Shown here: positions 43,440 through 64,000 of the stretch, one piece after another
How the letters are laid out: each line of letters starts with the position of its first letter
Numbering within the stretch: the first letter of the stretch is position 1
NCBI GenBank assembly: GCA_029959195.1
Contig: CP114125.1
Coordinates: 62,001 to 126,000, forward strand
Source: Dictyophora rubrovolvata
Taxonomy: Eukaryota > Basidiomycota > Agaricomycetes > Phallales > Phallaceae
Reading direction: 5' to 3'
Length of the DNA stretch: 64,000 bases
Notes under the pieces: generated by a model
What the model was told of the DNA's origin: nothing
The model's input: only the letters and a program-made list of their open reading frames with translations
The model's database searches: none
Translations under genes and position numbers: made by a program

Positions 43440-44280
43440 CCTAGCGACGTGTCGGAAATACCGGGATTCCAGATCCATCTTTAAATTTGAAGGCCATCTT
43501 CGCCAAACTGCTGGAAGAGATCGAAAGAAGTGAGAGACGTCGTTGGGCAATGAAGTGCAGTGCATTAAGGAACAGGTAATCGTGGGTCTTAGATATGAAC
43601 ATAAGATGTTGAGGATATGAAGGCACGGTGATGAATGAAGAATGTCGAGCAGGCCCGGGATATCACCGTCGATGACCGTGTTAGAGACAAAGTGAAGCTG
43701 AAGTGTTGACAGATTCTTGAATGTAGAAACAGATTGAAGTTCTTTGAGACCGACAAAAATTTGGAGATGTGCATGTTTGAGATTGGGTGCATTTCCAAGA
43801 AACAGGTTTTGATACGCTTCTTGGAGTGCAACCCAATCTTGTTCGTTTGAGTGGGGCGTTTCGAGATAGAGTTTTTGTAACATAGGGACAGGCTGTCTGA
43901 GGAGGCGAAAGACAGTGTTGGCATGTGTTGTTGGAATCATTGTTGGAATCCGCATGTAGATTTTTTGAAATCTGTGAACATGAGGAAGTATTTTCATTAG
44001 ATTAACCAATTGAGACGGGTGGGATGAATATTTGAATAGCCAGGCTGTTCAATGAACACATCCAACGGGGCCGAACCAGATCGCGAAAGCATTTCTCTCA
44101 GTTCACCTGATGCAAGTCCACATTGTTGGGTGGGAGAGAAGTGCAGTCCTCCACGAACGACAAACACGCGTCGCCTCAATCGGGGGTAGCCTTGTCTCGT
44201 CAACATCAAAAAGAATAGTAATGTGTGAGAAATGCCTGTATGATTTTGCTGAATATCTCATATGGAACGCGATCGAGCAT
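43440..44280 (-). pseudogene. F-box protein copy A, truncated pseudogene
   Basis: Starts at 44280 with MLDRVPYEIFSKI-type F-box sequence and continues FDVDETRLPPIEATRVCRSW, RTALLSHPTMWTCIR, EMLSRSGSAPLDVFIEQPG, HRFQKIYMRIPTMIP, LRQPVPMLQKLYLETPHSNE and FKNLSTLQLHFVSNTVIDGD. Compared with copy B (49754-51394) frames change at about 44110 and 44000. The block between the ITCS and LHFIAQRRLSLLSIS segments (about 60 residues) is deleted, and everything after the GSGIP segment is missing. Head-to-head with aminopeptidase 1, 655 bases apart. Confidence 0.85.
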
Positions 44281-44887
44281 GGTATGTTTGATGTCAGATG
44301 GTAGGCGCAAACACCGCTGCCACCCACGGTGATCCACACAACACACGAACGCAGCGACTCCAACGTTCTCCCTTCTGCATCTTTATATCAGCCCTTTGAA
44401 GGACAGTTTGCTTAAAAAAAGATTTGTTTTGTGCAGGTTTATGAACCACTAATCTCGAGCGGAACCCAGCAAGTGTTCACAAAAACAACTATTTACTCAA
44501 TTCAGGCCATACTAAGAGGGACCGCAGATATACAATACGCAAGAGAGCCGAAGCAAGTGTGGTCAATTATTCATTTGCGTAGGCTGCAGCAGACGTGCCT
44601 ACCACACCGTAGGTTGTCTCGCTCAGAAACCGATCTAATACGCTTTTACTTAAGATGCTTTTTAGGAGCTTTCGGCCCGCGTGCAAAGCTATCGTGGGTC
44701 TGACGAACTGCGATTCTATTATTACGAGTCTTCTCAGTGGATCATCGAATCTAGTACAATTGGTCACATGGTGGAAATCCAGAGCAGAAAGAATTGAATG
44801 ATGATCGCTATTGACTGGCGCGGCAACAGCGTTGCGCTGGTATTCGTTCTTTCACAGGTTCAAAATCTTGAATGACATACCCGTGAG

Positions 44888-44894
44888 TATATAA
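44888..44894 (+). promoter_or_regulatory. TATA box of aminopeptidase 1
   Basis: TATATAA, 41 bases before the ATG at 44935, inside GTGAGTATATAA that is repeated before copy 2 at 52126-52132. Conservation of the element and its spacing after duplication supports it. Confidence 0.6.
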
Positions 44895-44934
44895 TACAAA
44901 CCACGCACAAATTACGCCCATCTCCACTTCTTCG

Positions 44935-47900
44935 ATGTCTAATCCCTCATCCGAGTCTTCGACACAATATAGGCTTCCTTCCGACGTTAGGCCGGTCCAT
45001 TATGAGCTCGTACTCAAAACCGATCTTGACAAACTAGAGTACCGAGGATTTGTTACTATTGAGTGCGGTCCACGCGTTCTCTTCCGTATGGTCCAGCTGA
45101 CTCATTTCAAGCCTCGAGGTCGATGTTGACACGAAATCATTCACATTCAACTCTTCTAAACTTACTATCGAAAAAATATATGCATCCCACTACGATGCTA
45201 AACCTGAGCCAATCGACCGAGCCAATCTTACTCTCGACGAAGGATCGGAGAGAGCGACCATTACTCTTCCAACCGCCTTCGAGAAAGGCAGTCGGGTTAC
45301 ACTATCCATTCTTTATAAACTCCAGTTAGCCAATAACCTGAAAGGTAAATATGTGATCTCGACGTTTAATAGCACCTTTATTTTTGAAACGATTGACAGG
45401 ATATTACTACTCTACATATGGGATCCAGGGAAAGAAACGTTATTACGCGCTTACACAATTCGAGGTGAACCGTCTCTTCGTTCAAGTATTCCACTTGCGC
45501 TAAACTTCACAAGGCGATATCTGCTCGTGCTGCTTTTCCTTGCTGGGACGAACCCGCTCTGAAAGCTAAATTCACTATCACCATGATATCCAAAACCAAT
45601 ACCGTCAATTTATCAAATATGCCAGCCATGTCAGAAACCGCAATTACTCCAGGTCATCATGCTGGCTTGTTTGAAGATGGAGACTATGAAGGATGGAAAA
45701 TCACCCGATTTGAAACGACTCCGAAGGTATTCTCCTTTTGAACTGCGATAGCTGAACTGTCGAGTCGATTATAGTAACAACCGCAGATGTCCACGTATGT
45801 TGTGGCTTTTGCTAATGGCGAATTCAAATATCTAGAAAGTTCTTATATAAGTCCGTTGAGCAGGAAGTTACGCCCCTTGAGGATATACGGTAATCAATTT
45901 CTTTTTTTTAAAAATTCAAAGTCATTTGTTGACAAGGGAAACAGCAACCGAGGACGTTATCCATCAAGGTCAGGTATGGCTGTTCGGGTCTTGAACTGAA
46001 GATAAATGCCTCAGCATGAATTATGTGTAGTTTGCTTTAGACGTCAAAGCTAAAGCGCTGGTTCAATACGAAAAGGTCTTCAATATTGAATTTGCCCTCC
46101 CAAAGTTGGACACGCTCGTGGTATGTCCAACTAAATCATTTCACGTCTTTCATTCGTTTGAGATATTCCTAGGCACATGACTTCGGTGCCGGCGCTATGG
46201 AGAATTGGGTAAGACAATAAAGCGAACCTCTGCATTCCTCTGTTTTTCATTTTTCACTTTCCCTATATTAGGGTTTGATTACAGGACGAACGACAGTGTA
46301 TCTCGTAGATCCTGAACGAGCGGACCTGGTTTCTAAACAGAGTATTGCGGTTACCCAAAGTCATGAGGTGAGGTTCAGTCTTCCAGTTCGGCGTGCTATG
46401 CTTGAGTGAAAAATAAACACGACAGGTAGCACACATGTGTATGCTTTTTGTTGTTCGATGTCGCGGTCTCTCGTGATTAAAACTCAAGGGTTTGGGAATA
46501 TCGCTACGATGAAATGGTGGGATAATCTTTGGTTAAATGAAGGTTAGCGGAATACCGTCATTGTTATTGTTATTGTTATTGATGGTCTGGCATAGGCTTC
46601 GCGACTCTCATGGGCGAAGTGGTCATTCTCAACAAGTTCGAGTTTTTTCGAAGTGTTACTATTAATTCTGAATACAATATCGTAGATTATTTCCCGAATG
46701 GAAGGTTTACTCAAGTTTCTACAATCGTCATACATCGAGTGCTTTGTCTCTGGATGCTCGACCATCTTCTCATCCTGTTCAAGTGCCCGTTCCCAATGCT
46801 GATGACATTGGTCAGGCATGTGCTTCGTTCTTCATGTATCCTCCACACCCTAATTGATCTCAAGATCTTCGATTCTTTGTCCTATTCCAAAGCAGCATCT
46901 AGTTCGTATTTCATTTATTGATCCGAGTCTCAGCCATGGTGCTAACCCTTCTTTCATTAGTCCTCCGTATGCTCTCAGTATACACCGGAGAAGAAAGATT
47001 TCTGAAAGGCGTGTCGATTTATCTGAAGAATCATCTGTATGGTAATACCGTCGCGGAGGATCTGTGGGCTGGGATACAAGAGGCTACAGGTATATACATA
47101 CGCTTTTACTCAAATGTGCATGCCGCGTTAGCCTAATAATGACGTCTACGAGATGCAGGAATGGACATAATCACTTTAATGCATGACTGGACATCAAAAG
47201 CATGTACAGTGTTCCAATTTTACGACGGTGTTTGTCTAATGGTCGATTAAACCAGACCGGTTATCCGGTTTTAACTGTTACCGAAGCGAAAGATGGTATC
47301 CATATCCGCCAGGATAGGTTCTTTATCAGTGGGAAGGCGGAAGAGAAGGATAATCAAACAATTTGGTTTGTCACTTTATCTCACGTTTTGCTTTTGGTTC
47401 ATGAATTGTATTTAAATCCAGGCACGTTCCTTTGGCTATTCTCACCGTCGACTCGGAAGGCAAAACATCCATTGATAATCACGCGTTACTTAAAACAAGA
47501 GAAACGACTCACAAGCTCGATACCAACCGTTTATGGAAGCTGAACGCAGGTTCAACTGGGTTCTGTATGCATCTTCGGCTGCCAAACTGTTTGCGTAGCC
47601 AGGGATTACTGATTTTGTCATAGATCGAGTCTTTTATTCTCCAGAGCATATGATCAAGCTCGGTCAAGAAGCTGCTTCTCCAAATTCTAATCTAACAGTG
47701 GTGGACCGCCTGGGGATATTGAACGATGCGATGGCTCTCGCTACGTCCGGCTATTCGACCACGAGTAGTGTCTTGAGTTTCATAGATAAATTGAGATCTG
47801 AAAATGATTGTACGCCGTCTCTTCACTCCCATGTATATATTTCAAACGTACTAACCTTTTCTTCCAAAGACCTTGTATGGCAAAGCATGTTAAGCCAAGT

Positions 47901-49122
47901 TTCGCTTGTCAGTGAGACTCGTCTTGATGAAGTAGACGAAGACGGTTTGCGAGATTTTCGCAGGGTAATTTACATGCATCGCCAGCTCCAGTTTTCACGT
48001 TCATGATCATGGTTTCTTTGACGATAGACCCTGATAACCCCACTTTCGAGAAAACTAGGATATGAATATCCGCACGACGAGCATTTTGAGACGAATAAGT
48101 TACGTACTACTGCGATTGGTGCAGCAGCCCGTGGCGGTTTACCCGAGTAAGTCGCGCGTGCGTGCTTCACCGCATTTTGCAATTATCATCATCAGGGTCG
48201 TCCAAAAATTACAGGAGTGGTTTGAAATTTATCTGAAGACGGGTTCGGATTCTCATATACCGCCGGATCTTGTCAGAATCACTTTCATCATTGTATGTGA
48301 ATTTCCTGAATTGAAGTGCATGCCTCTCATCATATCCCACGGTACTAGGCGAATAAACATGGAGGTAGACGGGAGTGGGAGGAATCGAAGAAAGTATTCC
48401 TCAATCCTGCAAACCCCACTATTCAGATTGCAGCCATTTTCGGCATGACTAACACTCGCGATCCCGCTTTAATCGAGGAAACTTTGGATTTCATTCTTAA
48501 TTCCGCACCAGTTCATGTAAGTTTTCCCTTTAATTTGTCATTATTTCGATGAACGGCACACTGACTGTTTTTATTTTGGTGTAGGTCATCATTTATTTCG
48601 CGATTGGGGCTTCGACGAACAGGAATATCGGAAGGGTATGTGATAAATATTGATAATCGGCCGCATTTGCATATTGGCATTGACGCTTTCCATTACTTTA
48701 TCCTTCCAGAAACTATTCACGTTTTTCACCTCAAATTATGATGAAGTAAATAAGTTCCTTCAGAGGAAGTCCTGCATGATTTTAACGATAATTCGAAACT
48801 TTCGATTTCTAGCTCGCGAAGAAACTAGAAGGGACAAAGTTATCCCACCTTCTTCGATCAGTTTCCGACGTATTGACAACTTTGGAAGACGCCCAAGAAC
48901 TCGAAGATCATTTCAATGATAAAGATACGTCCAAGATCAATCGATCACTTGCTCAGGCGTTAGATATCATTCGTGCTAAAGCAGCGTGGGCAGAAGTAAG
49001 TCGAGAACTAAAGTGACACGTTCTGTTTCCTGACTCTTTCTTCTCAGAGAAGTAAGGATGAAGTCAAGGATTGGCTTGAAGAGTGGAAGAAGAACAACAC
49101 AATTGAAGCGGGAATTCCTTAA
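44935..49122 (+). CDS. M1-family zinc aminopeptidase, copy 1 (AAP1/APE2/puromycin-sensitive type)
   Basis: Removes N-terminal residues from peptides in the cytosol, completing proteasomal protein breakdown. More than twenty short introns. Start [20 protein letters not shown], then [36 protein letters not shown] (exopeptidase motif, exon near 46180-46209), the zinc site HE (46365) spliced to VAHMW spliced to [19 protein letters not shown], giving HExxH-x18-E. The ERAP1-like C-terminal domain includes [55 protein letters not shown] and [17 protein letters not shown], stop at 49120-49122. A GC-AG intron lies at 46816-46864. One junction, after RPLRIY (about 45898), cannot be put in phase with canonical sites, so activity is uncertain. 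Otherwise frames close. Confidence 0.85.
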
Positions 49123-49753
49123 GTCCGCATGCGATTTTGTTCGCGGCCTGTGAATCATCAATGAGGCGATAACTGTGGTTGTACCGATGTTTTTGTTGTA
49201 AAGTCTAAATTCGAGCGTTTGATATTTTCTGAATCCAGCTCGCTTGGTTTAAGCATCTGTCTGATTGAAACAAGACTTTTTCCCATGCCAGCAAGTATCA
49301 TTTCACTACGCGTACAATAACTTGAACCTTCATGTTTCATATCAATGTTTCTTCAATGTATCAGTCAATTCGAAAATTATAATTACCACCAAAAGCCGAA
49401 ATAGCGTCAAGTTCACAAGGAGCATGGTGGCACACAAGGTCTGATGAAGGAGGATATACGTTAACAGTTGGCGCAGACACTAATATTGGAGCAGCTTGAT
49501 CTCGAGCACCTACAGTAATGCGCACATAAATAGGATCATCTATCCACTGGGCCTGAACGTACGCTTGATCCCGGCGTGGCATTGAAAGTTGCGGTTTCTT
49601 TGTTTGTCGACATGTCCAACGTGTCCTAAATTTACTCAAGTTCTTCGAAAGTCATTTATAAATCCATAGTCATATTATTCATCGCATTGAACATCTACAA
49701 AAAGGAATTATGCATAGGCTAGTTTTGAATAGTCGCATCTAATAATCCATGCT
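49123..49753. other. 3' flank of aminopeptidase 1, partly duplicated
   Basis: About 49140-49260 matches the flank of copy 2 (56390-56510) and, inverted, of copy 3 (about 61020-61110), for example TGTAAAGTCT-AATTCGAGCGTTT. The rest holds a minus-strand frame 49639-49361 (IYVRITVGARDQAAPILVSA, ending GGNYNFRID), of which only the last part survives near copy 2; its identity is unknown. Confidence 0.6.
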
Positions 49754-51394
49754 TCACGATGCAATTATCCGAACTTCAACGTGCGAACATGAAAGTTCGT
49801 GAGCCTGTAGCCATATTTTCGCACTTTCCGCAAGGGCTGGATGTTCACAAAAGAGAGATATGGATTTGAATGGGTATCCGGTCTGTTCTCGAGTCTTGCA
49901 ACACTGGGCGAGCTCTTGGAAATAGGGTTCCTCAAATTCCTCAGACTTGTGAGAAAAGACTAGTTCCAGTGTACGCAAAGACGGGCAAGGGAGCAGGTGT
50001 CCTTGGCCAGCGTCGTTATTCGGTCCGAGGTCCGCTATTTCCGATTCCGAACCTGCTTGGGTAAGTTGTGTTTGGACGTTTGAGTGCCGTAGCTGAGGCA
50101 CTAATGCCTCCAAGTATGATCTCGGAATTGAAGAGCCATCTACAAGGGTATCTCCGTTCCAACTTTCCCCATGATGAGCACGCAAATGTTGTAAATTTTC
50201 TTGTAAAGGGAAAATACTTCTGAGGGCCGCAGATTTAAATTCCGCTGGAATGATTTCCAAGTACATGTGCGTAATATCCGACATTTTGAATTTTCGTAGT
50301 AAATTAGACAGTGCGTCCAAGGGCGCGTAGTGGTCGTACAGTATTCTCAATACTGAACTTTCTTTGGAATGAAGACCGGATGTTGGGGATCCCAGGTCTA
50401 TCTCTTCAAAGAATTCGATGGTCATTGCCATTGAAACGCTGGGAGAGATGGAGAGAAGTGGTAGACGGCGTTGGGCAAGGAAGTGTAATAAGAGAGTTGA
50501 GTCAGATATTTTGGGGTAGGAATCGTCACAGGTAATGTCAAAGTCAACCTTGTCGACCGGAAAATCTAGACGTCCCAAAACGAAATTCACGTTATCGACT
50601 CTACATCTGCCTCGAAGCTTGAGTTTTTGTAAATACGGCAGGACGACACGATGGGTAGGAGGCGTGGAACAGGTAATCATGGGTCTTAGATATGACCATA
50701 AGATGTTGAGGATATGAAGGCATGGTGATGAATGAAGAATGTCGAGCAGAATATCACCGTCGATGTCCGTGCTAGAGACGAAGGAAAGATGAAGTGTTGA
50801 CAGATTCTGGAATAATAGAGAAATAGGTTCAAGTTCTTTAAGACCGGCGGAAACTTGGAGATGTACATGTTTGAGATTGGGTGCATTTCCAAGAAACAGG
50901 TCTTGATAGGCTTCTCGGAGAGTATCCCATTCTTGTTCACTTGAATCATGCATGTCAAGATAGAATTTTTGTAACATAGGAGCAGGCTTCCTGAGGAGGC
51001 GAAAGGCCACACGAGCAAGTGTTTTTGGAATAAACATTTGAAGTTTTCGAAATCTGTGCATTTCTCGGAAAACATAAGGAAGTATGTTGATTCTATCAAA
51101 TTGAGACGGGTCGAAGCCAAACGGTTCAATGAACACGTCCAATGGGCAAGAACCAGACCGGGAAAGCATCTCTCTCAGTTCCCGTGACTCCCTGCGGGTG
51201 AACTTGAGCCTGATGCAAGTCCACATTGTTGGGTCGGAGAGAAGTGCAGTCCTCCACGAACGACAAACATGTGTGGCCTCAATCGGGGGTAAGCTTGTCT
51301 CGTCAACGTCGAAAAGGAAAGTAATGAATGAAAAATAGATGTATGAGGTCCTGATGATTTTGCTGAATATCTCGTATGGAACACGATCGAGCAT
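49754..51394 (-). CDS. F-box protein copy B, 546 aa, intact
   Basis: One uninterrupted frame. ATG at 51394 is chosen because MLDRVPYEIFSKIIRTSYI aligns with the starts of copies A and C; the frame is open 23 codons further upstream. The N-terminus is an F-box-like segment (VPYEIFSKII...PIEATHVCRSWRTALLSDPT, MWTCIRL), the Skp1-binding motif of SCF ubiquitin ligase adaptors. The remaining 480 residues are leucine-rich with repeated patterns (LQKFYLDM, LKHVHLQV, LSTLHLSFV, LHILNILWSYLRP, LQKLKLRGRC, LRTLELVF), consistent with an irregular LRR target-binding domain of the type common in Agaricomycetes. Tail-to-tail with aminopeptidase 1 and head-to-head with aminopeptidase 2 (778 bases). Target unknown. 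Confidence 0.87.
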   Translation of the reverse strand: MLDRVPYEIFSKIIRTSYIYFSFITFLFDVDETSLPPIEATHVCRSWRTALLSDPTMWTCIRLKFTRRESRELREMLSRSGSCPLDVFIEPFGFDPSQFDRINILPYVFREMHRFRKLQMFIPKTLARVAFRLLRKPAPMLQKFYLDMHDSSEQEWDTLREAYQDLFLGNAPNLKHVHLQVSAGLKELEPISLLFQNLSTLHLSFVSSTDIDGDILLDILHSSPCLHILNILWSYLRPMITCSTPPTHRVVLPYLQKLKLRGRCRVDNVNFVLGRLDFPVDKVDFDITCDDSYPKISDSTLLLHFLAQRRLPLLSISPSVSMAMTIEFFEEIDLGSPTSGLHSKESSVLRILYDHYAPLDALSNLLRKFKMSDITHMYLEIIPAEFKSAALRSIFPLQENLQHLRAHHGESWNGDTLVDGSSIPRSYLEALVPQLRHSNVQTQLTQAGSESEIADLGPNNDAGQGHLLPCPSLRTLELVFSHKSEEFEEPYFQELAQCCKTREQTGYPFKSISLFCEHPALAESAKIWLQAHELSCSHVEVRIIAS

Positions 51395-52172
51395 GGTGTA
51401 AGGACCTAATAGGCGCAGCCACCACTGCCACCCACACAACACGCGAACGCAACCTCGGAGCACTGCACATTCTTTGCATCTTCATGTCAGCCCTCTAGAT
51501 GACGGGTTACTTCAATTCCCAACAAATAATGGGGGAATGTGTTAAGTATTGATTCCGGGACTCAACGACAGGTAGTGGAACCCAGCAAAAACACACTATT
51601 TACGCTCGGTTCAAGCCACCCCGTAGGGGCTATACTAGGAGGAACCGTAGATATGCAATAAGCAAGAAAATTTAAGCACACATGTGGCCAATCACACAAT
51701 CAAACCTTGGAGTCATTTGCGTAGGCTGCAGCAGACGTGCCTGCCACGCCGTAGGTTGTCCCACCCAAAAACTGATCAACAAGCTAATACGCTTTCAGGG
51801 CTATAGCTAAAGACCCCTTTTAGGAGCTTTTGGTCTGCTTGAAAAGCTGTCATCGGGTCCGACGAACTCTGAAGAACTGCGATTCTATTATTATGAGTCT
51901 TCTCAGTGAGTCAGTGAATCATCGCATCAACAATCAGTCACATGGTGGAAATCCACAGCGCGCAGAATTTACCAAACTAGGGCTATCGGAAGGACATCTT
52001 TTTCGATTGCCGCATTTGAGATGCTGAATTGCGTGATTATCGCTTTTGATTGGCTTGGCGGCAACAATGCGCTCCTTCATGAGTTCAGGAAGTGTACACG
52101 CTTCTTGAATATAAGTACCTGTGAGTATATAACACAAGCCACGCACAGACCAGTCCCATCTCCGCTCCCTTG
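51395..52172. promoter_or_regulatory. Duplicated divergent promoter region of F-box B and aminopeptidase 2
   Basis: Homologous to 44281-44934 between F-box A and aminopeptidase 1: shared blocks include GCGTAGGCTGCAGCAGACGT, CGATTCTATTATTA and CACATGGTGGAAATCCA. The TATATAA of copy 2 is at 52126-52132. The region is a candidate bidirectional promoter. Confidence 0.6.
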
Positions 52173-55100
52173 ATGTCTAATCCTTCATCTGAATCATCGA
52201 CACAGTATAGACTTCCTACGGAAGCTAGACCAGTCCATTATGATCTCGTACTCAAGACCGATCTTGACAAACTAGAGTACCGAGGATTTGTTACTATTGA
52301 GTGCGGTCCACGCGTTTTTTTCCGTACGATCCAGCTGACTCATTCCAAGCCTCGATGTCGATATTGACACGAAAACATTCACATTCAACTCGTCCAAACT
52401 TACTATAGAAAAGATATTCGTGTCCCAGTCTAACGCTAAAGCTGAGCCAATTGATCTAGCCAATCTTACCCTCGACGAAGGATCTGAGAGAGCGACCATT
52501 ACTCTTCCAACCGCGTTTAAGAAAGGAGACAAGGCTAGAATATCCATCCGTTATAAACTCCAGTTAGCCAATAACCTGAAAGGTACGTATGGGGTCCTGA
52601 CATTTTAAATGAACTTTTCTTTTTTTCTGAAAATGAGTACCAGGATATTACTACTCTACATATGAGATCCAAGGGAAGAAACGTTATTACACGCTTACAC
52701 AATTCGAGGTGAATCATCTCTTCGTTCAAATACTGCACCTAAGCTAACCTCTACCAGGCGACATCTGCTCGCGCTGCTTTTCCTTGCTGGGACGAACCCG
52801 CTCTGAAAGCTACATTCGCTATCACCATGATATCCAAAACTAATACCGTCAATTTATCCAATATGCCAGCCACATCAGAATCCGGAATTACTCCAGGTCA
52901 TCATCCTGACTTGTTCGAAAACGAAGGCTATGAAGGATGGAAAATCACCCAATTTGAAACGACCCCCAAGGTATTATTCTTTTGGCTTACTGTTGTTAAA
53001 GTGTCGAGTTGATCATGGGATCGATGGCAGATGTCCACCTATATTGTGGCCTTCGCCAATGGCGAATTCAAATATTTGGAAAGTTCTTATACAAGTCCTT
53101 TAAGTGGCAAGATACGCCCTTTGAGAATATACGGTAATCAATTTTTTTTCGTCCGGAGTCATTTATTGACAAAGGAAACAGCGACAGAGGACGTTATCCA
53201 TCAAGGTCAGGTATGGCTGTTCGGGTCCTGAATTGAAGATAAATGCCTCAGGATGAATTATGTGTAGTTTGCTTTAGACGTCAAAGCTAAAGCGCTGGTT
53301 CAATACGAAAAGGTCTTCGATATTGAATTTGCCCTCCCAAAGTTGGACACTCTCGTGGTATTTCCAACCCAATCAATTCATGTCTTTCATTCATTTGAGA
53401 TATTCCTAGGTACATGACTTCGATGCCGGCGCTATGGAGAATTGGGTAAGACAATAAAAGCGAACCTATGCATTCCTCATTCCTCTGTTTATGACTTCCC
53501 CTATATTAGGGTTTGATTACAGGACGAACGACAGCGTATCTCGTAGATCCTGAACGAGCTGACCTGGCTTCAAAGCAGGATATCGCTGATTCCCAAAGTC
53601 ATGAGGTGAGTTTCAGTCTTCGGGTTCGCCGTGCCATGCCTGAGCTGAAAGGAACACGACAGGTAGCACATATGTGTATGGCTTTCGTTATTTGATGTCG
53701 CGATCTCTCGTGAATAAAATTAAAGGGTTTGGGAATATCGCTACAATGAAGTGGTGGGACAACCTTTGGTTAAATGAAGGTCAGCGGAATACCGTCATTA
53801 TTGTTGTGATTGTTATTGATGGTCTGGCATAGGCTTCGCGACTCTCATGGGCGAAGTGGTCATTCTAAACAAGTTGGAGTTTTTTTCGAAGTGTTACTCA
53901 GGTTACTTCTGAACACAACATCGTAGATTATTCCCCGAATGGAAGGTTTATTCAAGTTTCTACAATCGTCATACATCGAGTGCTTTGTCTCTGGATGGTA
54001 GACCGTCTTCCCATCCTGTTCAGGTACCCGTTCCCAATGCCGATGACATTGGCCAGGCATGTGCTTCGTTCTTCATGTATCCCCCACACCCTATTAATTG
54101 ATCTCAAGATCTTCGATTCTTTGTCCTATTCCAAAGCAGCATCTAGTCCGTATTTCTTTAATTCATCCGAGTCATGACACTAGCCCTTTTGCACTCTCAT
54201 TAGTCCTCCGTATGCTTTCAGTATACACCGGAGAAGAAAAATTCCTCAAAGGCGTGTCGATTTACTTGAAGAATCATTTGTATAGTAATACCGTTGCGGA
54301 GGACCTTTGGGCTGGGATACAAGAGGCTACAGGTATTTACACTTCTACTCAAATGTACACGCCGCGTTACCCTAATGGGATGTAGGACTGGACATAATCA
54401 CGTTAATGCATAACTGGACATCGAAGGTATGATAGTGTTCTAACTAACCGCTGCATTGTTTGTCTAATGGTTGATTAAACCAGACCGGTTATCCAGTCTT
54501 AACTGTTACGGAAACGAAAGATGGTATCCATATTCGCCAGGATAGGTTCTTCATCAGCGGCAGGGCGGAAGAGAAAGATAATCAAACAATTTGGTTTGTA
54601 TTGGTTCATTATGATCCATCTTACCTTTTGAATTCGGCTCATGAATCATTAATCCAGGCACGTTCCTTTGGGTGTACTAACCGTCAACTCGGAAGGCGAA
54701 ACGTCCATTGATAACCACGCATTACTTACTGCAAGAGAAACGACTTACAAACTTGATACCGGCCGTTTATGGAAGTTGAACGCGGGTTCAACTGGATTCT
54801 GTATGCTATGGTTGCTAAACTGAATGTGTAGCTGGGGATTACTGATCTTGTCGTAGATCGGGTCTTCTATTCTCCAGAGCATTTGATTAAGCTCGGTCGA
54901 GAAGCTGCTTCTCCAAATTCTACTTTAACGGTAGTGGACCGCCTGGGGATATTGAATGATGCGATGGCTCTCGCTTCCTCCGGGTATTCGACCACGAGTA
55001 GTGTCCTGAGTTTCATAGACAAACTGAGATCTGAAAATGAATGTACGCAGTTTCTTTATCTCCATGTATGTCAGTCTTAGTAACTTTTTCTTCCAAGATC

Positions 55101-56368
55101 TTGTATGGCAAACCCTGTTAACCCAAGTTTCACTTGTCGGGGAGAGTCGTCTTGACGAAGCAGACAAAGATGGTTTGCGCGATTTTTTAAGGGTGATTCG
55201 TGTACCGCTAGCTCCAACCCCCACTTCTATACTCATAGTTTCTTGATCATAGACCCTAATAGCCCCACATTTTAGACGACTAGGATATGAGTATCCGCCT
55301 GGCGAACATTTTGAGACGATAAAGTTACGAACTATTGCGATTGGTGCAGCAGCAAGTTGTGGGTTACCCGAGTAAGTCGCGCGTGCTCACTTTTGCCGTA
55401 TTTACCATTTGAATTTTGCAATTCATCGCCATCAGGGTCGTCCAGAAGTTACAGGAGTGGTTTGAAATATATCTGAAGACGGGGTCGGATTCTCATATAC
55501 CGCCGGATCTTGTCAGAATCACTTTTTCCATTGTATGTGAATTTCCTAGATTGAAGTGCATGCACATCATCATATCCCGTACAATAGGCGAATAAACATG
55601 GAGGTAGACGGGAGTGGGAAGAATCGAAGAAAGTATTCCTCAATCCTGCAAACCCTACTATCCAGATTGCAGCCATTTTCGGCATGACTAACACTCGCGA
55701 TCCCGCTTTAATTGAGGAAACTTTGGATTTTATCCTTAATTCCGCACCAGCTCATGTAAGATTCTCCCTTTATTCTGCCGTTATCACAATGAACGGCACA
55801 TTGACGGTTTTTCCATTCTGGTTTAGGTTATCCTCTATTTCATGTATGGGTGTTCGACGAACAGGAAGATTGGAAGGGTACGTGATTAATATTGTTAATC
55901 GGCCGCATTTGCATATTGGTATTGACGCTTTCCATTATTTCATTCTTCAAGAAACTATTCACGTTTTTCATCACGAATTATGATCAAGTAAATGAGCTCC
56001 TTTATGAGAGGAAGTCCTGCATGATTTTAACGATAATTCGAAACTTTCGATTTCTAGCTCGCGAAGAAACTAGAAGGGACATTCAATCTACCTTATCTTC
56101 TTCAATCAATATCTGACGTGCTGACAACTCTGAAAGACGCCCAAGAACTTGAAGATTATTTCAAGGATAAAGATACATCCAAGATCAATCAGTCGCTTGC
56201 TCAGGCATTGGATATTATTCGTGCTAAGGCAGCGTGGGCAGAAGTAAGTCGAGAACTAAAGTAATACGTTTTGTTACCTGACGCTCTCTTCAGAGAAGTA
56301 AGGATGAAGTCAAGGATTGGCTTGAAGAGTGGAAGAAGAACAACATAATCGAAGCAGGAGTTGCTTAA
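52173..56368 (+). CDS. M1-family zinc aminopeptidase, copy 2
   Basis: Tandem paralogue of copy 1 with the same intron positions. Start [20 protein letters not shown] (the codon before ATG is TTG). Motifs: [37 protein letters not shown] near 53440, the zinc site HE (near 53605) spliced to VAHMW and [96 protein letters not shown] and the C-terminal [20 protein letters not shown], stop at 56366-56368. The GC-AG intron corresponds to 54057-54108. The same splice problem after RPLRIY (about 53132) occurs here. Head-to-head with F-box B. The family is a cytosolic or vacuolar peptide-trimming enzyme; specificity unknown. Confidence 0.85.
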
Positions 56369-56706
56369 GAAGTCAAATCCATATATAATTTCGGTGGTGG
56401 TACGTGAATTATCAATGAATCGATAGCTGTAATTGTCCCGATGTTCTTTCTGTAAAGTCTCAATTCGAGCGTTTCATCTTTTTTCTGAATCCAGAGCATC
56501 TGTTGGGTTGAAACAAGGCATGAGTATTATTTCACGCGACACTCTTGTGGGGAATAATTTGTCATTAATTCTTCAATGCGTCAGTCAGTTTGAAAATTAC
56601 CACCAAAGTCTAGCTCGCAAGGTCTGATTCCATAATCTCATCGGAGTTAAATTTGGTAATCAGTATTAGGAAGACATACCGCTTTCTCTCCTTCACCAAC
56701 GTTCTC

Positions 56707-58047
56707 ATGTTCCCGACACGATATTTCGTTGTCTCTTTCTATTTCTTTGTTGCTTTGATCATTCAGATTCAGGTCGGCGTAGCCCAAGACGACGGCATAG
56801 TACCCCTCGCTGATAGGCGCATACCATACGATGAAATAGTACGCTCTCTGTTTTTGAACTAGCACCTCTGACAATATTCTCAAACTTGCAACATCATTAA
56901 AGCCCGATAAAGTAGACACCAGCGACGGCCCACGTGGAATTCAAGTCGGCTACAACCGCTGTAACGCCACGACCGAAGGCCAGTCTTCTCTATGTCAAAC
57001 GGCATATGTAAACTCTTTGGACGATTTCTGCATTTGGGGTCCCCGCGAACCCAATTCGACAATTGCTGTTGAAGAAGGTGCTCTCGTGGCGTGGTGTACC
57101 AAACCCGGGCGTGGAACGCGTATCATCCCTCCAAACGCGCTGCTCGGTGTCCAGTTTATGCGGACGCCGGATTATGTGCAGATTACTGGACGAATTGACC
57201 AATCCATGATTAATATTGCGTCGAATGACACCGGTGGAGGTGGGTATATGCTAGCTGATTTTCATGTAGTTTTCTTCTGGACACCCTTTTCCTAACAGAG
57301 GAAGACCCACATGGTGCCGACGGGCGAGGTAATCCTCTTGGATCGCTCGTGTACAGCAATGGCTTCCCTTCCAATGGCGGAAATTCGAGCAACTTTGAGC
57401 AGATTATTGAATGGCACAAGTCTGTATAATCCTAGTTCGACTACAGATTGTCGTTTTACTGTGAATTCTTTTCAGCTTTCTCGGTGGGAACGTATTCTGC
57501 TTTAAAATCTGCGATCCTGCTGGAGCAAACGCTGCGAACTACTGTCAACATATCTACGATCGCATTGGATGTGCATATAACGCACCTGCGGGGTATCAAG
57601 AGGGCGTATTTGAAAAGTGTCTTGGAGACAATCAAGATTTCCCGGGAGTTTACACCGGGCCAGACGGTCAAGGCGAGTGATGTCTTTCAAAAGTTGAATG
57701 CTTAGACTGAACATCGGGTAGTCTCTACTTTCTTCCAACCTCCCGAGTCTTTGGGTCCAATTACCAGCATTCCGTATCAACCTCGAATTCCTCCCTCGTC
57801 CAATTGCGTTCAGTACAGCAGTGAAGACCTTTATTCCTCTGCAGCTAATTTTTTCCCAAAACCAACAACTTCAAATAACCTCACTACGTCAACTTCTTCC
57901 CCAGGACCAAACGAGATTCCCTTGGCTACAGCGTCCATGAATAACAATGCGAGCCCTAGTCACGTTTCGTATTCATGGTCCGAGTCTTATTCGAACTTCT
58001 ATAATCCTCTAGGAACGTTCCTCGTTTTGTGCGTGATGTTTCTTTAA
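56707..58047 (+). CDS. Secreted GPI-anchored protein of the macrofage-activating-glycoprotein-like family, 368 aa
   Basis: Five exons close in phase: 56707-56838, 56903-57239, 57299-57419, 57476-57666, 57722-58047. Start MFPTRYFVVSFYFFVALIIQ is a signal peptide with cleavage likely after GVAQ. The body holds the family pattern: GIQVGYNRCNATTEG, SLCQTAYVNSLDDFCIWGP, VAWCTKPGRGTRIIP, VQITGRIDQSMINIASND, DPHGADGRGNPLGSLVYSN, CFKICDPAGANAANYCQHIY, DRIGCAYNAPAGYQEGVFEK and DFPGVYTGPDG, then QPPESLGPITSIPYQPRIPP. A Ser/Thr/Asn-rich stem leads to a C-terminal hydrophobic tail (PLGTFLVLCVMFL), a GPI-anchor signal. Ten or so cysteines suggest disulphides. Family members are abundant extracellular basidiomycete proteins of unknown biochemical role. 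It lies 339 bases behind aminopeptidase 2 and breaks the F-box/aminopeptidase array. Confidence 0.88.
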
Positions 58048-59000
58048 GCTTTTCAAATACTTGTTAGTAGTGAAAAGGTCTAGTAATCAGTACTCTCAAC
58101 GTTTGTAACTATGGCAATATCGCTTCGCTTATAAGTTTAAAAATACTCAGCCGCGGCAAGCGCCCGCTGCCAACGTTTACAGTGCGACCTGGGGCTTCGG
58201 AATGATCATGGAATTTAAGCTGTGTCGTGACACTTCAAACAAATTTCCTCCGGGGAACCCGAGTAAATAAGATCTTCAAATGTACGAGATGATAAGTTTT
58301 CTTCTCTCTTCGGGGTCATTGTAAAGCCATTCGAAAAAAGATCGGAAATAAGGGCAAATTGGCATGAGGTAAACTAAACCGAACTCTTATCAAGAAGCTT
58401 CGAGAATTCGTAAGCGACACAAATTCGAGGCGGGAAATATTGGATTGGGACTGTGAAGTGATAAGCTCTGAGGCACTGGCACTGATAAGTAATATTTCCA
58501 GTTGACTAGCTAATGACAACTGAAAGACTACCAACACAGAACTGAAAGGTTATTCAAGCCAGTTATACAATGCTGACGCGCTACGAAGTCGTATAAAATT
58601 AAGTCGTTCTACCCACGATTTTACCTCAACTGTAAAGAACACCAATCTAGAACCACAAATTCCTACTCGCGCCTATGAAACCTTACAAGACTCGACCTCA
58701 TCTATGAACTAGTCGCCCCCATACACATATAATGTGTGCAGGTTGCATGTATGGACGATGGACCGTGGACATTATGGATGGTTGTCAAAGGGCTCGGCCC
58801 TCCGAGAATTAATTGATTCACACACATGCACACACGGATTGTTGTAGGTAGTCAACTAAGCTCTGTCTTAGGAATCGTAACAGTCAACTAAGGGCAGAAC
58901 GTGGTGATGAGCGTGACGTCGGCGTTCGTTCTTTCAACAGGGGTAGTGCCAGTGGTGGCCACATACCAATTTTCACTTCTTATATTGACCGACCCCAGCG
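58048..59000. other. Intergenic before F-box C
   Basis: No gene recognised. A CA-rich stretch (about 58820-58836) and a short G/T-rich segment precede the F-box C start. A small minus-strand frame (58316-58537) has no support. Confidence 0.45.
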
Positions 59001-60817
59001 ATGCTTGACCGTGTTCCATACGAAATCTTCAGGAAGATAATTAAGTCCTCATACACCCAATGTTCACTCGCTACTTCTTTCAACTCTGAGGCGACGCATG
59101 TTTGTCGTTCGTGGAGGGCCGCACTTCTATCTGATTCAATTATGTGGTCTTGCATCAAGCTCAGGACCACTCGAGCGTACTCGGATGAATTGAAAGGAAA
59201 CACTGCCCTGATCTGGCGCTGCTCCATTGAACGTGCTTATTGAACAGAGGGACAATTTGCGCAACTCATCTCTCATTTAACAACAGCTAGGGTAATATAG
59301 CTTATATTACAAGCAGCAGAATATAGTTAAAGAGTTCAAGGCGAAGCCTTAAACGTTAGATATGTACAGAAAAGAATGAAAAAGGAATAGCTCACCTAAA
59401 GAGTTCAAGGCGAAGCCTTGAACCTTTAGGCGAGTGTGTGACTAAGCTAAAACTATCTACACAAGCGCCCACACTTAGTGGCGCTGTCTATCTTCAACAT
59501 CATTGTTGACCTTAACAGCATACTTTCTATCGTTTCCTATGAAATGCACAGATGTCGACAACTCCAAATAATTATCCCAGGGCATTTGGCACCCTTTATC
59601 TCCCACTCCTTCAATCGACCTGCTCCTATGTTGCGGAAGTTCTATCTCGAAGTTGTCGGGAGTGAAGGCAATTTAACACAAAGGGGTATGCTTAGGGGAA
59701 TCCATGGAGTCTTGTTTTCCGGTGACGCACCCCGTCTTCAACATGTGCATCTCCAAATTGTCGCCGGTTTAGACGACCTTCAATCGTCCCTATTCAAGAA
59801 TTTGTCAACCCTTCATCTTCAATTTGTCTCCAAGACGACCGTCGACGGGAACATACTGCTAGGAATTTTCCGATCATCGCCGCACCTTCGTATACTTGAC
59901 ATCATGTGGTCACGTCTAAGACCAAAAATTGTTCGTCCAATATATAACCATCGGATTCCTTTGCCGTGTTTACAAGAGCTGTCTCTTCGAGGTAGTTGCG
60001 GGGTCGATATCATAAATCTTATTCTGGGACATCTCGAGTTTTCGATGGAGAAAGTCAATCAATATTATGTACGACGATTCTCATCCCAGAATCTCGGATT
60101 CAGCATCTCTATTACACCTTGCTCAACGACATCTCACATTTTTATCAATCTCATTCGACTCTTTTCAGTTGATCCTCGAATTCTCTGAAAATATGATCAT
60201 AAAGGACTTAACAGCTTGGTATTTAAAACCGCATACAATTACACTCGTGACGGGCCCTTGAACCGTCTTCCAAACTTCCTTCGAACTGGAACATTCAATT
60301 TATCAGATATCACGCACATATGTCTGGGGGATATTTCGTTGAAACCGGTATTGCTCAGGAGTATTTTGGGTTTGTCGGAAAATTTACAATTCATCATGGG
60401 AATTGGGACGAGGATCCTCCTTTACCTGGTTCTTCACTTCCGAGATTATCGTACTTAAAGGCGTTAATGCCTCCGTCGAGCATTTTTAACCTTCAAACAC
60501 AAGAAAGTTCAGAATCGGAAACAGATGACAGGAATATGGACCCGGAATCAAATGTCGAGGCTGGCCAAGAACACTTGTTTCCTTGCCCTTCGTTGCGTAC
60601 ACTCGAAGCACTTTTCCGTTCCGATCATTTGCCAGTAGGATTGGATGAAGCCTATCTCAGAGCGTTCGTCCGGTGTTCCAGGATTCGAGGACAGGCGGGA
60701 CACCCATTCAAATATATAGCCAACTGTTGTGGCAGTTTGAGCTTCGCGGAAAATATTGCGGCATGGTTGCAAGTTCATGATGGTTTTCCCGCTGAGGTCA
60801 TTCGGTCAGTTGGATAA
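59001..60817 (+). pseudogene. F-box protein copy C, pseudogene interrupted by a repeat
   Basis: Begins MLDRVPYEIFRKIIKSSYT, then ATHVCRSWRAALLSDSIMWS and continues, compared with copy B, in several frames. A one-base shift and a stop occur in the SRSG segment (about 59195-59210), and a repeat (59279-59501) sits between the IEQ and YEMHRCRQLQ segments. A shift follows near 60060 (EKVN to MYDDSHPRISDS), another near 60190-60240, and one near 60380 between the SILGLSENLQF and HHGNWDEDPPLPGSS segments. The C-terminal part AGQEHLFPCPSLRTLEAL to VIRSVG is open. Clearly inactive. Tail-to-tail with aminopeptidase 3 (303 bases), the mirror image of the aminopeptidase 1/F-box B junction. Confidence 0.88.
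59279..59501 (+). repeat. Dispersed repeat, copy 2, inside F-box C
   Basis: Matches 1437-1573 in the same orientation. This copy is longer because a segment of about 68 bases around the palindrome TTCAAGGC-GA-GCCTTGAA is present twice. It interrupts the F-box C reading frame and explains why this gene lacks the sequence that copy B has between VFIEP and REMHRFRK. Noncoding. Family unresolved (solo-LTR-like or MITE-like). Confidence 0.8.
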
Positions 60818-61119
60818 GAATGTGTTAGATGATTCAAAATTACAATGTACATTACATTTCATTGATGTCTGAACTATGATCGATCTTAACAAATATATGG
60901 CTATTATTTTGTTTTGTTTTCCATTGAAGGACGCTCGGCGTGTGAGGCCTTCGAGGCTGAAAGGCTCAATATCAATTTGATTAATAAATGTTGATGCCCA
61001 ATATCAACCGTGATTAGGTGATTCAGATAATACACAAACATTTGAATATCTACTTTACGGCAAATACATCGGTGTAATCACAGCGATCATTTCATTGATA
61101 ATTCACAGATTTTACCTTC

Positions 61120-64000
61120 TTAAGGAACTCCTGCTTCGATTGTATTATTGTTCTTCCACTCCTCAAGCCAATCCTTGACTTCATCATTACTTCTCTAAGA
61201 AGCGAAGGAGTCAGACGACAAAACGTATCTCTTCTAATCATAGACTTACTTCTGACCACCCTGCTTTAGCGCGAATGATATCCAACACTTGGGCGAGCGA
61301 CTGATTGATCTTGGACGTATCTTTATCCTTGAAATAATCTTCAAGTTCTTGGGCGTCTTGCAAAGTTGTCAATACGCTGGATATTGATCGAGGAAGAAAG
61401 GAGAAACTGAGTGTCTCTTCTAGTTTTTTTGCGAGCTAGAGATGAAAGGTTTCGGATTATCGTTAGATAATGCAGGACCTCTCATGGGGAACCACTTTAC
61501 TTCATCATAATTTGTGATGAAAAACGTAAACAGTTTCTGCCAAAATAAAATGATGGAAATGATATATAAATACGACCGATTATCACATACCCTTCCAATC
61601 TTCCTGTTCGTCGAAGCCCCAGTCATGAAATTAAGGAGAACCTAAACCATAAAAAACGTCAGTGTGTCGTTCATTAAAATGATGCCAATATAGAGAGAGA
61701 ATTACATGGGCTGGTGCAGAATTAAGAACGAAATCAAAAGTTTCCTCAATTAAAGCGGGATCGCGAGTGCTAGTCATGCCGAAAATGGCTGCAATTTGAA
61801 CAGTAGGATTCACAGGATTGAGGAATACTTTCTTTGAGTTTTCCCACTCCCGTCTACCTCCATGTTTGTTTGCCTAGGTTATAATGATGAACATGCGCTA
61901 TAATCTAAGAAGTTCACATACAATGATAAAAGTGATTCTGACAAGATCCGGCGGGACATGAGAATCCGAACCCGTCTCCAGATAAATCTCAAACCACTCC
62001 TGTAATTTCTGGACGACTCTGATGATAATAATTGCAAAGTTCGATGAAGCAGAGTGCGCGCCACTTACTCGGGTAAACCACTATCTGCTGCTGCACTAGT
62101 CACGGTGGTTCGTAACTTTATCGTGTCAGAATGCTCTCCAGGCGGATACTCAAATCCTAGTCGTCTCGAAAGTGGAGCTAGCAGGGTCTATGATCAAGAA
62201 ACTGTGAGCATAGAAGTGAAAGCTGGAGTCAGCAGTACACGCGAATCACCCTTAAGAAATCTCGCAAGCCATCTTTGTCTGCTTCGTCAAGACGACTCTC
62301 GCTTACAAGCGACACTTGGGCTAACATGCTTTCCCATACAAGGTCTTTGAAAAAAACGTAGTAAGTTTGATGTGCATGGAGATAAAAAGACAGCGTACAT
62401 TCATTTCCAGATCCCAGCTTCTCTATGGAACTCAAGACACTACTCGTGGTCGAATAGCCGGACGTAGCGAGAGCCATTGCATCATTCAATATTCCCAGGC
62501 GATCGACCACTGTGAGAATAGAATTTGGAGATGCAGCTTCCTGACCGAGTTTGATCATATGCTCTGGAGAATAGAAAACTCGATCTATGACAAAATGAGT
62601 AATCCCTGCGCAAACAGTTTGGCAATCGAAGAAGCGTACAGAATCCAGTTGAACCGGCGTTCAGCTTCCATAAACGGTTGGTATCAAGTTTGTACGTCAT
62701 TTCTCTTGTGGTGAGCAACGCGTGATTATCGATGGATGTTTTGCCTTCCGAGTCGACGGTGAGAATAGCCAAAGGAACGTGCCTGGATTTAAATACAATC
62801 CATGAGCCAAGGGCAAAACGTGAGATAAAGTGACAAACCAAATTGTTTGATTATCCTTCTCTTCCGCCTTGCCACTAATAAAGAATCTATCCTGGCAGAT
62901 ATGGATACCATCTTTCCCCTCCGTAACGGTTAAGACAGGATAACCGGTCTGGTTTTGGCTATTAGACAAACAACGCATCAATTAGCTAGGACGCTATATT
63001 TACCTTTGATGTCCAGTCATGCATTAACGTGATTATGTCCAGTCCTACATCCCATTAGGGTAACGCGGCGTGTACATTTGAGTAGAAGTGTAAATACCTG
63101 TAGCCTCTTGTATCCCAGCCCAAAGGTCCTCCGCAACGGTATTACTATACAAATGATTCTTTAGATAAATCGATACGCCTTTGAGAAATCTTTCTTCTCC
63201 GGTGTATACTGAAAGCATACGGAGGACTAATGAAAACAGGGTCACTGTCATGACTGAGACTCGGATCAATCAATGGAACACGAACTAGATGCTGCTTTAG
63301 AATAGGACAAAGAATCGAAGATCTTACAAAAAAAGTAAGGTATCAAACGAAAACACCAAAAATGAAGTACGTGCCTGACCAATATCGTTGGCATTGGGAA
63401 CGGGTACTTGAACAGGATGGGAAGACGGTCTACCATCCAATGATAACGCATTCGTTGTATGACGATTGTAAAAACTTGAATAAACCTTCCATTCGGGAAA
63501 TAATCTACGATGTTATGTTCAGAGCTTGATTTCCGGCAATACTTTGGTAAAAATTGAACTTGTTCAGGACGACCACTTCGCCCATAATAGTCGCGAAACC
63601 TATGAACCATCAAGGGTAAGGTATAGCAACAACAGCAAGGACAGTATTCTTCTAACCTTCATTTAACCAGAGATTGTCCCACCATTTCATTGTAGCGATA
63701 TTACCGAACCCTTGAGTTTCATTCATAAGCTGAGTGATCGCAACACTAAATAACACAAAGCATACACATATGTGCTATCTGTGGTGATACTTTTAATTTA
63801 AGCGTAGCACGGCGAACTCGAAGACACAAACTGACCTCGTGACTTTGGACATTAGCGATAGTCTGTTTTGAAACCAGGTCAATTCGTTCAGGATCTACGA
63901 GGAACACGTTTGTTCTTCCTGTGATCAAACCCTAATATAGTGAAAATTAACAACCTGAAAGGGGAGAGAAGAATGGACATATTCGCTGCATTGTCGTACC
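61120..64000 (-). CDS. M1-family zinc aminopeptidase, copy 3 (5' end beyond the window)
   Basis: Inverted third paralogue. From the right edge: GLITGRTNVFLVDPERIDLV, the zinc site HE (about 63840) spliced to IAHMW, then [144 protein letters not shown] and [20 protein letters not shown], stop 61120-61122. The first glutamate helix and catalytic motifs are present; GAMENW and the N-terminal 300 residues lie right of 64000. Intron positions match copies 1 and 2, including the GC-AG intron (63374-63323). No frame break found in the part seen. Its 3' flank is also homologous to those of copies 1 and 2. Confidence 0.85.

What the first reader, a model, noticed from the sequence alone, without database searches (positions are those of the whole stretch)
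43440..64000. Repeated F-box / M1 aminopeptidase pairs forming a segmental-duplication array
Three F-box copies and three M1 aminopeptidase copies alternate: A(-) 1(+) B(-) 2(+) C(+) 3(-). Homology covers coding exons, introns, the divergent promoter (44281-44934 versus 51395-52172) and 3' flanks (49140, 56390, 61100), so the unit was copied as a block, and the last pair is inverted. Only F-box B is intact, while the aminopeptidase copies keep their catalytic exons. SCF adaptors feed the proteasome and M1 aminopeptidases trim proteasome products, so a functional pair under one bidirectional promoter is conceivable; co-duplication by chance linkage is the null.
Basis: partly seen in the sequence, partly recalled or inferred. 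Interest (0 to 1): 0.8.

Follow-up and report, generated by a model that had tools for sequence, protein, structure and literature searches.

The report
Copied gene pair near chromosome ends
Near one end of a fungal chromosome a peptide-trimming enzyme gene and its back-to-back F-box-like neighbour were copied together several times, after which the enzyme genes stayed intact while most of the neighbours decayed, which looks like ordinary copying and decay rather than a working partnership.

Summary
Two tandem units lie at 43.5-56.5 kb: F-box-like A(-)/M1-1(+) and B(-)/M1-2(+), alike through exons, introns, divergent promoter and flanks. M1-3(-) is a third, inverted copy, but its partner is not C, which belongs to another F-box lineage (AU p 6.5e-5 against C with B). 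The likely partner is D, 9.6 kb beyond the window; a 7.5-kb insert split their promoter, and a relic near another contig end (C5: F-box, unsplit promoter, M1 exon 1) keeps the unsplit site. All three M1 genes are complete: 27 exons, no stops or frameshifts, 26 of 26 introns shared with the C3 paralogue, dN/dS 0.18-0.21, with mosaic identity suggesting gene conversion. Of four partner F-boxes only B is intact. Of 66 F-box-family loci found, only this clade adjoins M1 head-to-head. Other fungi and expression could not be checked.

The parts
43505..44280 (-). F-box-like A (unit 1), pseudogene: N-terminal ~246 residues recognisable with 3 frameshifts in them, the rest lost or decayed
   Evidence: clade with B, D, C5 at 100/99
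44281..44934 (.). Divergent intergenic (promoter) region of unit 1
   Evidence: aligned with unit 2, the unit 3/D flanks and C5
44935..49122 (+). M1-1, Ape2/PSA-like M1 aminopeptidase, 27 exons, 899 aa, intact; GAMEN exon 46173-46208; 13-nt micro-exon carrying VAHM of HEVAHMW 46426-46438
49754..51394 (-). F-box-like B (unit 2), intact single-exon frame of 546 aa
   Evidence: weak F-box-like and LRR signals only
51395..52172 (.). Divergent intergenic (promoter) region of unit 2
52173..56368 (+). M1-2, 27 exons, 900 aa, intact; GAMEN exon 53410-53445; HEXXH micro-exon 53663-53675
   Evidence: Pfam PF17900, PF01433, PF11838 all far over cut-off
59001..60808 (+). F-box-like C, broken; NOT part of the duplicated unit; its frame is interrupted around 59259-59518, where a short genome-wide repeat lies (59380-59500)
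61120..64000 (-). M1-3, window part (exon 9 to the stop; exon 8 only by one base), inverted third copy; exons 1-8 lie at C9:126000-127265, beyond the window but for that base; HEXXH micro-exon 63766-63778; whole gene 27 exons, 899 aa, intact
   Evidence: PF01433 match

Best explanation
A two-gene block (6.8 kb in unit 2), made of an F-box-like/LRR-like gene and a 27-exon Ape2/PSA-type M1 aminopeptidase head-to-head across a shared 0.65-0.8 kb intergenic region, was multiplied near a telomere as DNA. Shown: two tandem copies (A-1, B-2); an inverted M1 copy (3) whose upstream region stops where a 7.5-kb segment with 83-88% copies elsewhere on the same contig begins, with F-box-like D beyond it; and a truncated copy on contig C5 that keeps the unsplit arrangement. 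Shown: all three full M1 genes are intact, under purifying selection and mosaic with each other, while A, D and the C5 F-box are broken. Inferred: D was M1-3's partner; ectopic recombination and gene conversion made the copies; selection keeps the aminopeptidase (dosage or specialised peptide trimming), and the F-box-like neighbour is a hitch-hiker in the birth-and-death turnover of its large family. The M1 products most likely act as zinc aminopeptidases on peptides.
For: Homology across exons, introns, promoter and flanks. 26 of 26 introns at the same column and phase in the C3 gene and the three copies, so DNA-level copying. Fourth unit on C5: F-box 48944-47449, promoter 48945-49613, M1 exon 1 relic from 49614, nothing further of M1 found to C5:53000. 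Unsplit C5 site: C5 49034 pairs with C9 128056 and C5 49018 with C9 135522; the segment between is independently homologous to C9:1640847-1647459 and 1558274-1559614 at 83-88%, its left edge within 2-3 bases of the promoter breakpoint, its right edge 34 bases short. F-box clade A, B, D, C5 at 100/99. M1 dN/dS 0.18-0.21 at dS 0.33-0.38; simulated neutral drift of half that depth per copy gives about 14 stops per gene and 0 of 1000 runs per copy without a stop. Mosaic runs of informative sites, reached by 0, 3 and 0 of 5000 permutations. 3 of 66 F-box-family loci lie within 1.5 kb head-to-head of M1 (A, B, C5), plus D split off at 8.4 kb, all one clade (with 31, 33, 34). Telomere repeats at C9 base 1 and C5 base 1.
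Against: B and M1-2 are both intact, so a functional pair in that one unit is not excluded. D's own upstream match is short: about 38 bp to B2 (score 61 against a shuffle maximum of 44), 34-41 bp to C5, and not above shuffles against A1 (40 against 45). F-box dN/dS in the unit clade is 0.34-0.50, so these genes were constrained for part of their history. Branching orders differ: the F-box tree gives D,(C5,(A,B)) (D+C5 as a clade p-AU 0.034, B+D 0.0035), promoter identities pair D3 with C5 (77.5%) and A1 with B2, and M1 identity is mosaic, so one simple order of block duplications does not explain all parts. M1 gene models come from my own aligner, steered by a C3 model stitched by hand, without RNA evidence. 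F-box locus counts are lower bounds (79 of 102 candidates scored).
Confidence: 0.83

Rival explanations
1. Functional module: the F-box protein (SCF adaptor) and the M1 enzyme (trimming proteasome products) are co-regulated from one bidirectional promoter and were duplicated because the pair is useful.
For: Head-to-head geometry with 654 and 778 bp between start codons; B and M1-2 both intact; short blocks next to each gene are recognisable in all four promoter copies (141 invariant of 1102 alignment columns); in a pairwise alignment the promoter of units 1 and 2 is nearly as similar as introns (80.6% against 82.1% of ungapped columns).
Against: No B-family match on C3, where the related single M1 lies (capped), and all but one F-box clade found have no M1 head-to-head. 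Three of four partner F-boxes are broken while M1-1 and M1-3 persist without an intact one. The promoter shows no constraint above introns.
Confidence: 0.08
2. The third inverted unit is C + M1-3: a block carrying M1 and its tail-to-tail F-box was inverted.
For: C and M1-3 are tail-to-tail 0.3 kb apart, as B and M1-1 are at 0.6 kb.
Against: C with B as a clade: p-AU 6.5e-5; C inside the unit clade: p-AU 0.004. D and the C5 copy account for the missing partner and the promoter. Between the two tail-to-tail spacers only M1 3' flank is shared (89 bp).
Confidence: 0.03
3. Assembly artefact: false duplicates.
For: None found.
Against: M1 copies differ by 13-16% over the gene, far beyond read error; C9 has telomere repeats at both ends; the fourth copy lies on another contig.
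Confidence: 0.02

Closest known systems
Puromycin-sensitive aminopeptidase / fungal Ape2 (M1 family; PDB 8sw0 the best match of the C3 paralogue's exons)
   Same: N-terminal, catalytic and ERAP1-C domains, GAMEN, HEXXH-x18-E
   Different: Three diverged extra copies (about 61% identical to the C3 gene) in a subtelomeric array. The fungal name Ape2 is recalled, not from a call.
Large F-box-like/LRR-like families of basidiomycetes (general knowledge, recalled)
   Same: 66 loci found; 16 neighbouring pairs within 2 kb, of which 10 tandem, 5 head-to-head, 1 tail-to-tail; stops inside 16 of 80 matches
   Different: Here one clade shares its block with an M1 gene. The domain match is below Pfam's cut-off.
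Subtelomeric segmental duplication with birth-and-death and gene conversion (general concept, recalled)
   Same: Tandem and inverted copies, a relic on another chromosome, mosaic identity
   Different: Nothing in kind; the preserved unsplit promoter on another chromosome is an unusually clear record.

Membership tests
M1 aminopeptidase | Pfam M1_N, Peptidase_M1 and ERAP1_C domains over cut-off | tested here: met
   M1-2: 156, 234 and 252 bits (the only copy scanned whole); M1-1 and M1-3 matched exon-wise by PF01433
M1 aminopeptidase | GAMEN and HEXXH-x18-E motifs | tested here: met
   all three copies in the spliced translations; motif definition recalled
M1 aminopeptidase | aminopeptidase activity | not testable with these tools
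   none
F-box protein | F-box domain over the curated cut-off | tested here: not met
   B: PF12937 12.7 bits against 24.3
F-box protein | F-box-like signal at one place across the family | tested here: inconclusive
   7 of 8 family members scanned, B among them, hit PF12937 within residues 37-68 (one hit from residue 3), E 0.0098-0.11, none over cut-off; the eighth is a D fragment without its N-terminus. Three loci matched by B (C5:255k, C7:298k, C6:1.27M) overlap PF12937 matches over cut-off on the same strand
F-box protein | Skp1 binding / SCF assembly | not testable with these tools
Segmental duplication | homology beyond coding exons | tested here: met
   introns 77-82%, promoter, 3' flanks
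Functional bidirectional gene pair | divergent start codons under 1 kb apart | tested here: met
   654 bp and 778 bp
Functional bidirectional gene pair | both members retained together after duplication | tested here: not met
   1 of 4 units has both members intact
Functional bidirectional gene pair | co-expression; conserved pairing in other species | not testable with these tools
   no RNA data; no fungal relatives held (one search states that the genome has no relatives here)

The most novel reading that the evidence does not exclude
Unit 2 (F-box-like B and M1-2) is a working bidirectional degradation-and-trimming pair, the last intact one, and the other units are its decaying copies whose M1 genes were kept for dosage.
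Probability: 0.07. Interest if true: 0.5.

Novelty: new member of a known kind. Interest (0 to 1): 0.25.

Why it matters
It is a well-resolved example of how a gene pair can look like a functional module only because it was copied as a block. The C5 relic with the unsplit promoter lets part of the order of events be read, and the opposite fates of the two genes (enzyme kept, F-box-like gene mostly lost) show which member selection favoured. If the B/M1-2 pair did prove functional, it would link an SCF-type adaptor to a peptide-trimming enzyme by gene order.

Tried and rejected
F-box C as partner of M1-3: rejected by tree and AU test. Retrocopy origin: rejected, introns kept. Mobile-element origin of the 7.5-kb insert: no repeats of 40 bp or more within L010 (C9:126001-136000) and no obvious target-site duplication at the breakpoints (by eye); it matches other stretches of C9 at 83-88% and stretches of C11, C4 and C1 more weakly; the direction of copying was not tested. 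Promoter constraint as evidence against a pair: I first compared 72.9% with introns at 82.1%; on recheck the pairwise alignment gives 80.6% of ungapped columns, so only 'not above introns' stands, and I moved the odds slightly (best 0.85 to 0.83, functional pair 0.07 to 0.08, novel case 0.06 to 0.07). Naming the species: not attempted, contigs are unnamed. A PDB search with a profile of eight family members gave 2 chance-level matches (E 0.85 and 5.7). dS between the C3 M1 and the copies is saturated, so no dN/dS there. Literature: nine searches of the open PMC library; no title on F-box/M1 pairing stood in the listings (1 paper; 12 of 51 shown), and one search found none. Passages of two papers were seen (PMC10100673; PMC8893723); all other papers only as search listings. 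A first gene-model program mis-split several exons and was replaced.

Full report
Place. The window is C9:62001-126000 of a 28.24-Mb genome in 11 contigs; window position + 62000 gives the C9 position. C9 begins and ends with telomere repeats, so the array, at 105-137 kb of 1.94 Mb, is near a chromosome end.

Observation. Self-comparison confirms the alternation and block homology. Unit A-1 (C9:105505-111238) and unit B-2 (111653-118494) are tandem direct copies; M1-3 is inverted. The intergenic regions 44281-44934 and 51395-52172 align over nearly their whole length, and M1 3' flanks are shared for about 90-260 bp beyond the stop codon.

M1 genes. The family search found one related M1 gene on C3 (about 2399.5-2403.7 kb) and, by my reading of the open frames, a TAF2-like gene on C4 and LTA4H-like genes on C3 and C1 (those labels are recalled). 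Spliced alignment to the C3 protein gives 27 exons, no frameshift and no stop in M1-1, M1-2 and M1-3, 899, 900 and 899 aa, with 26 of 26 introns at the same column and phase in all four genes. GAMEN and HEXXH-x18-E are kept; the HEXXH motif is divided by a 13-nt micro-exon. dN/dS between copies is 0.18-0.21 at dS 0.33-0.38. Simulated neutral drift of 0.165 per site gave about 14 stops per gene, and none of 1000 runs for each copy was free of stops. Informative sites are patchy: 340 group 1 with 2, 269 group 2 with 3, 208 group 1 with 3, in runs longer than shuffles give (0, 0 and 3 of 5000). M1-2 52744-53352 is 96.5% identical to M1-3 although the genes are 85.4% identical overall. This suggests gene conversion.

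F-box-like genes. Searching the genome with B gave 80 matches (79 of 102 candidates scored, so a lower bound), which I merged to 66 loci. B is a single open frame of 546 aa. A is broken and has lost most of its second half; C is broken and interrupted where a short repeat lies that has 37 places of at least 97 bases genome-wide, itself included; D has one frameshift and ACG where the start codon should be, although an in-frame ATG lies upstream. The F-box domain is only a sub-threshold Pfam match, so 'F-box-like' is the safe name. A tree of 15 family members joins A, B, D and the C5 copy (100/99) and puts C with E, F, H and I (100/99); A fills only 42% of columns. C with B is rejected (p-AU 6.5e-5), as is C inside the unit clade (p 0.004).

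The real third and fourth units. An M1 search found exon 1 alone on C5 beside an F-box of the same clade. C5 carries F-box 48944-47449 (two frameshifts, internal deletion), a 669-bp intergenic region and an M1 exon-1 relic from 49614 without ATG in the expected place; no further M1 homology was found to C5:53000. Its promoter matches M1-3's upstream region to C9:128056 over about 0.5 kb, and D's upstream region from C9:135522 over 34-41 bp. So M1-3(-) and D(+) were most likely head-to-head, and about C9:128057-135521 came between them. The D-side match is short: against B2 it scores 61 (shuffle maximum 44), against A1 only 40 (maximum 45). The inserted segment has 83-88% copies in pieces at C9:1640847-1647459 and 1558274-1559614, the left edge agreeing within 2-3 bases and the right edge 34 bases short of the breakpoint. 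It holds a fungal-type protein kinase frame (PF17667) and a sulfotransferase-like match just below cut-off.

Function. If the pair were selected as a pair, both members should survive together. They do so in 1 of 4 units. M1-1 and M1-3 are intact next to a broken or displaced F-box. Among the other F-box-family loci found none lies head-to-head with M1 (C lies tail-to-tail with M1-3), and B found no relative on C3. Promoter identity for units 1 and 2 is 72.9% in the four-way alignment and 80.6% of ungapped columns in the pairwise one, against introns at 82.1%: no sign of constraint above introns. F-box dN/dS is 0.34-0.50 for the six pairs of the unit clade and 0.34-0.79 over all 12 pairs computed, so past constraint, weaker than in M1. 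The null of co-duplication by linkage, with selection on M1, fits best.

Results against a simple story. The branching order differs among F-box tree, promoter identities and M1 mosaic, so later exchange between units must have happened or one tree is wrong. Gene models lack RNA support. No other fungal genome could be searched. Structure prediction failed.

Verdict. A real, cleanly dissected segmental-duplication array; ordinary in kind.

Noticed in passing
C1, C2, C4-C9, C11 left ends; C5 and C9 right ends: Telomere repeats are TTTAGGG (plant type) at 9 of 11 left contig ends and 2 of 5 right ends read. Passages of PMC10100673 say most of 21 Basidiomycota surveyed there have TTAGGG, so this is unusual for a basidiomycete-like genome.
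   Followed up: partly
window 59380-59500 and 1469-1573: Short repeat (about 120 bp), 37 places of at least 97 bases, 81-100% identical, on all 11 contigs (40 of 48 candidates scored); MITE-like; one copy lies inside F-box C.
   Followed up: partly
C9:140278-146289 and 191443-197412: A second inverted segmental duplication (91.5% and 83.7%) carrying head-to-head F-box-like pairs E/F and H/I.
   Followed up: partly
C9:128057-135521: 7.5-kb segment between M1-3 and F-box-like D, shared with C9:1.56-1.65 Mb at 83-88%.
   Followed up: yes
window 46426-46438, 53663-53675, 63766-63778: The zinc-binding HEXXH motif of these M1 genes is split by a 13-nt micro-exon, also in the C3 gene.
   Followed up: yes
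C4:224-561 kb: Largest cluster of the same F-box-like family: 27 of the 31 loci on C4 (of 66 in all) lie in this stretch, many in tandem.
   Followed up: no
C9:158209-159392 and 161916-163099: Direct repeat pair of 1.2 kb, 87% identical.
   Followed up: no
window 56858-58047: Open frames between unit 2 and F-box C; the first (56858-57295) has no Pfam match at E 0.01.
   Followed up: no
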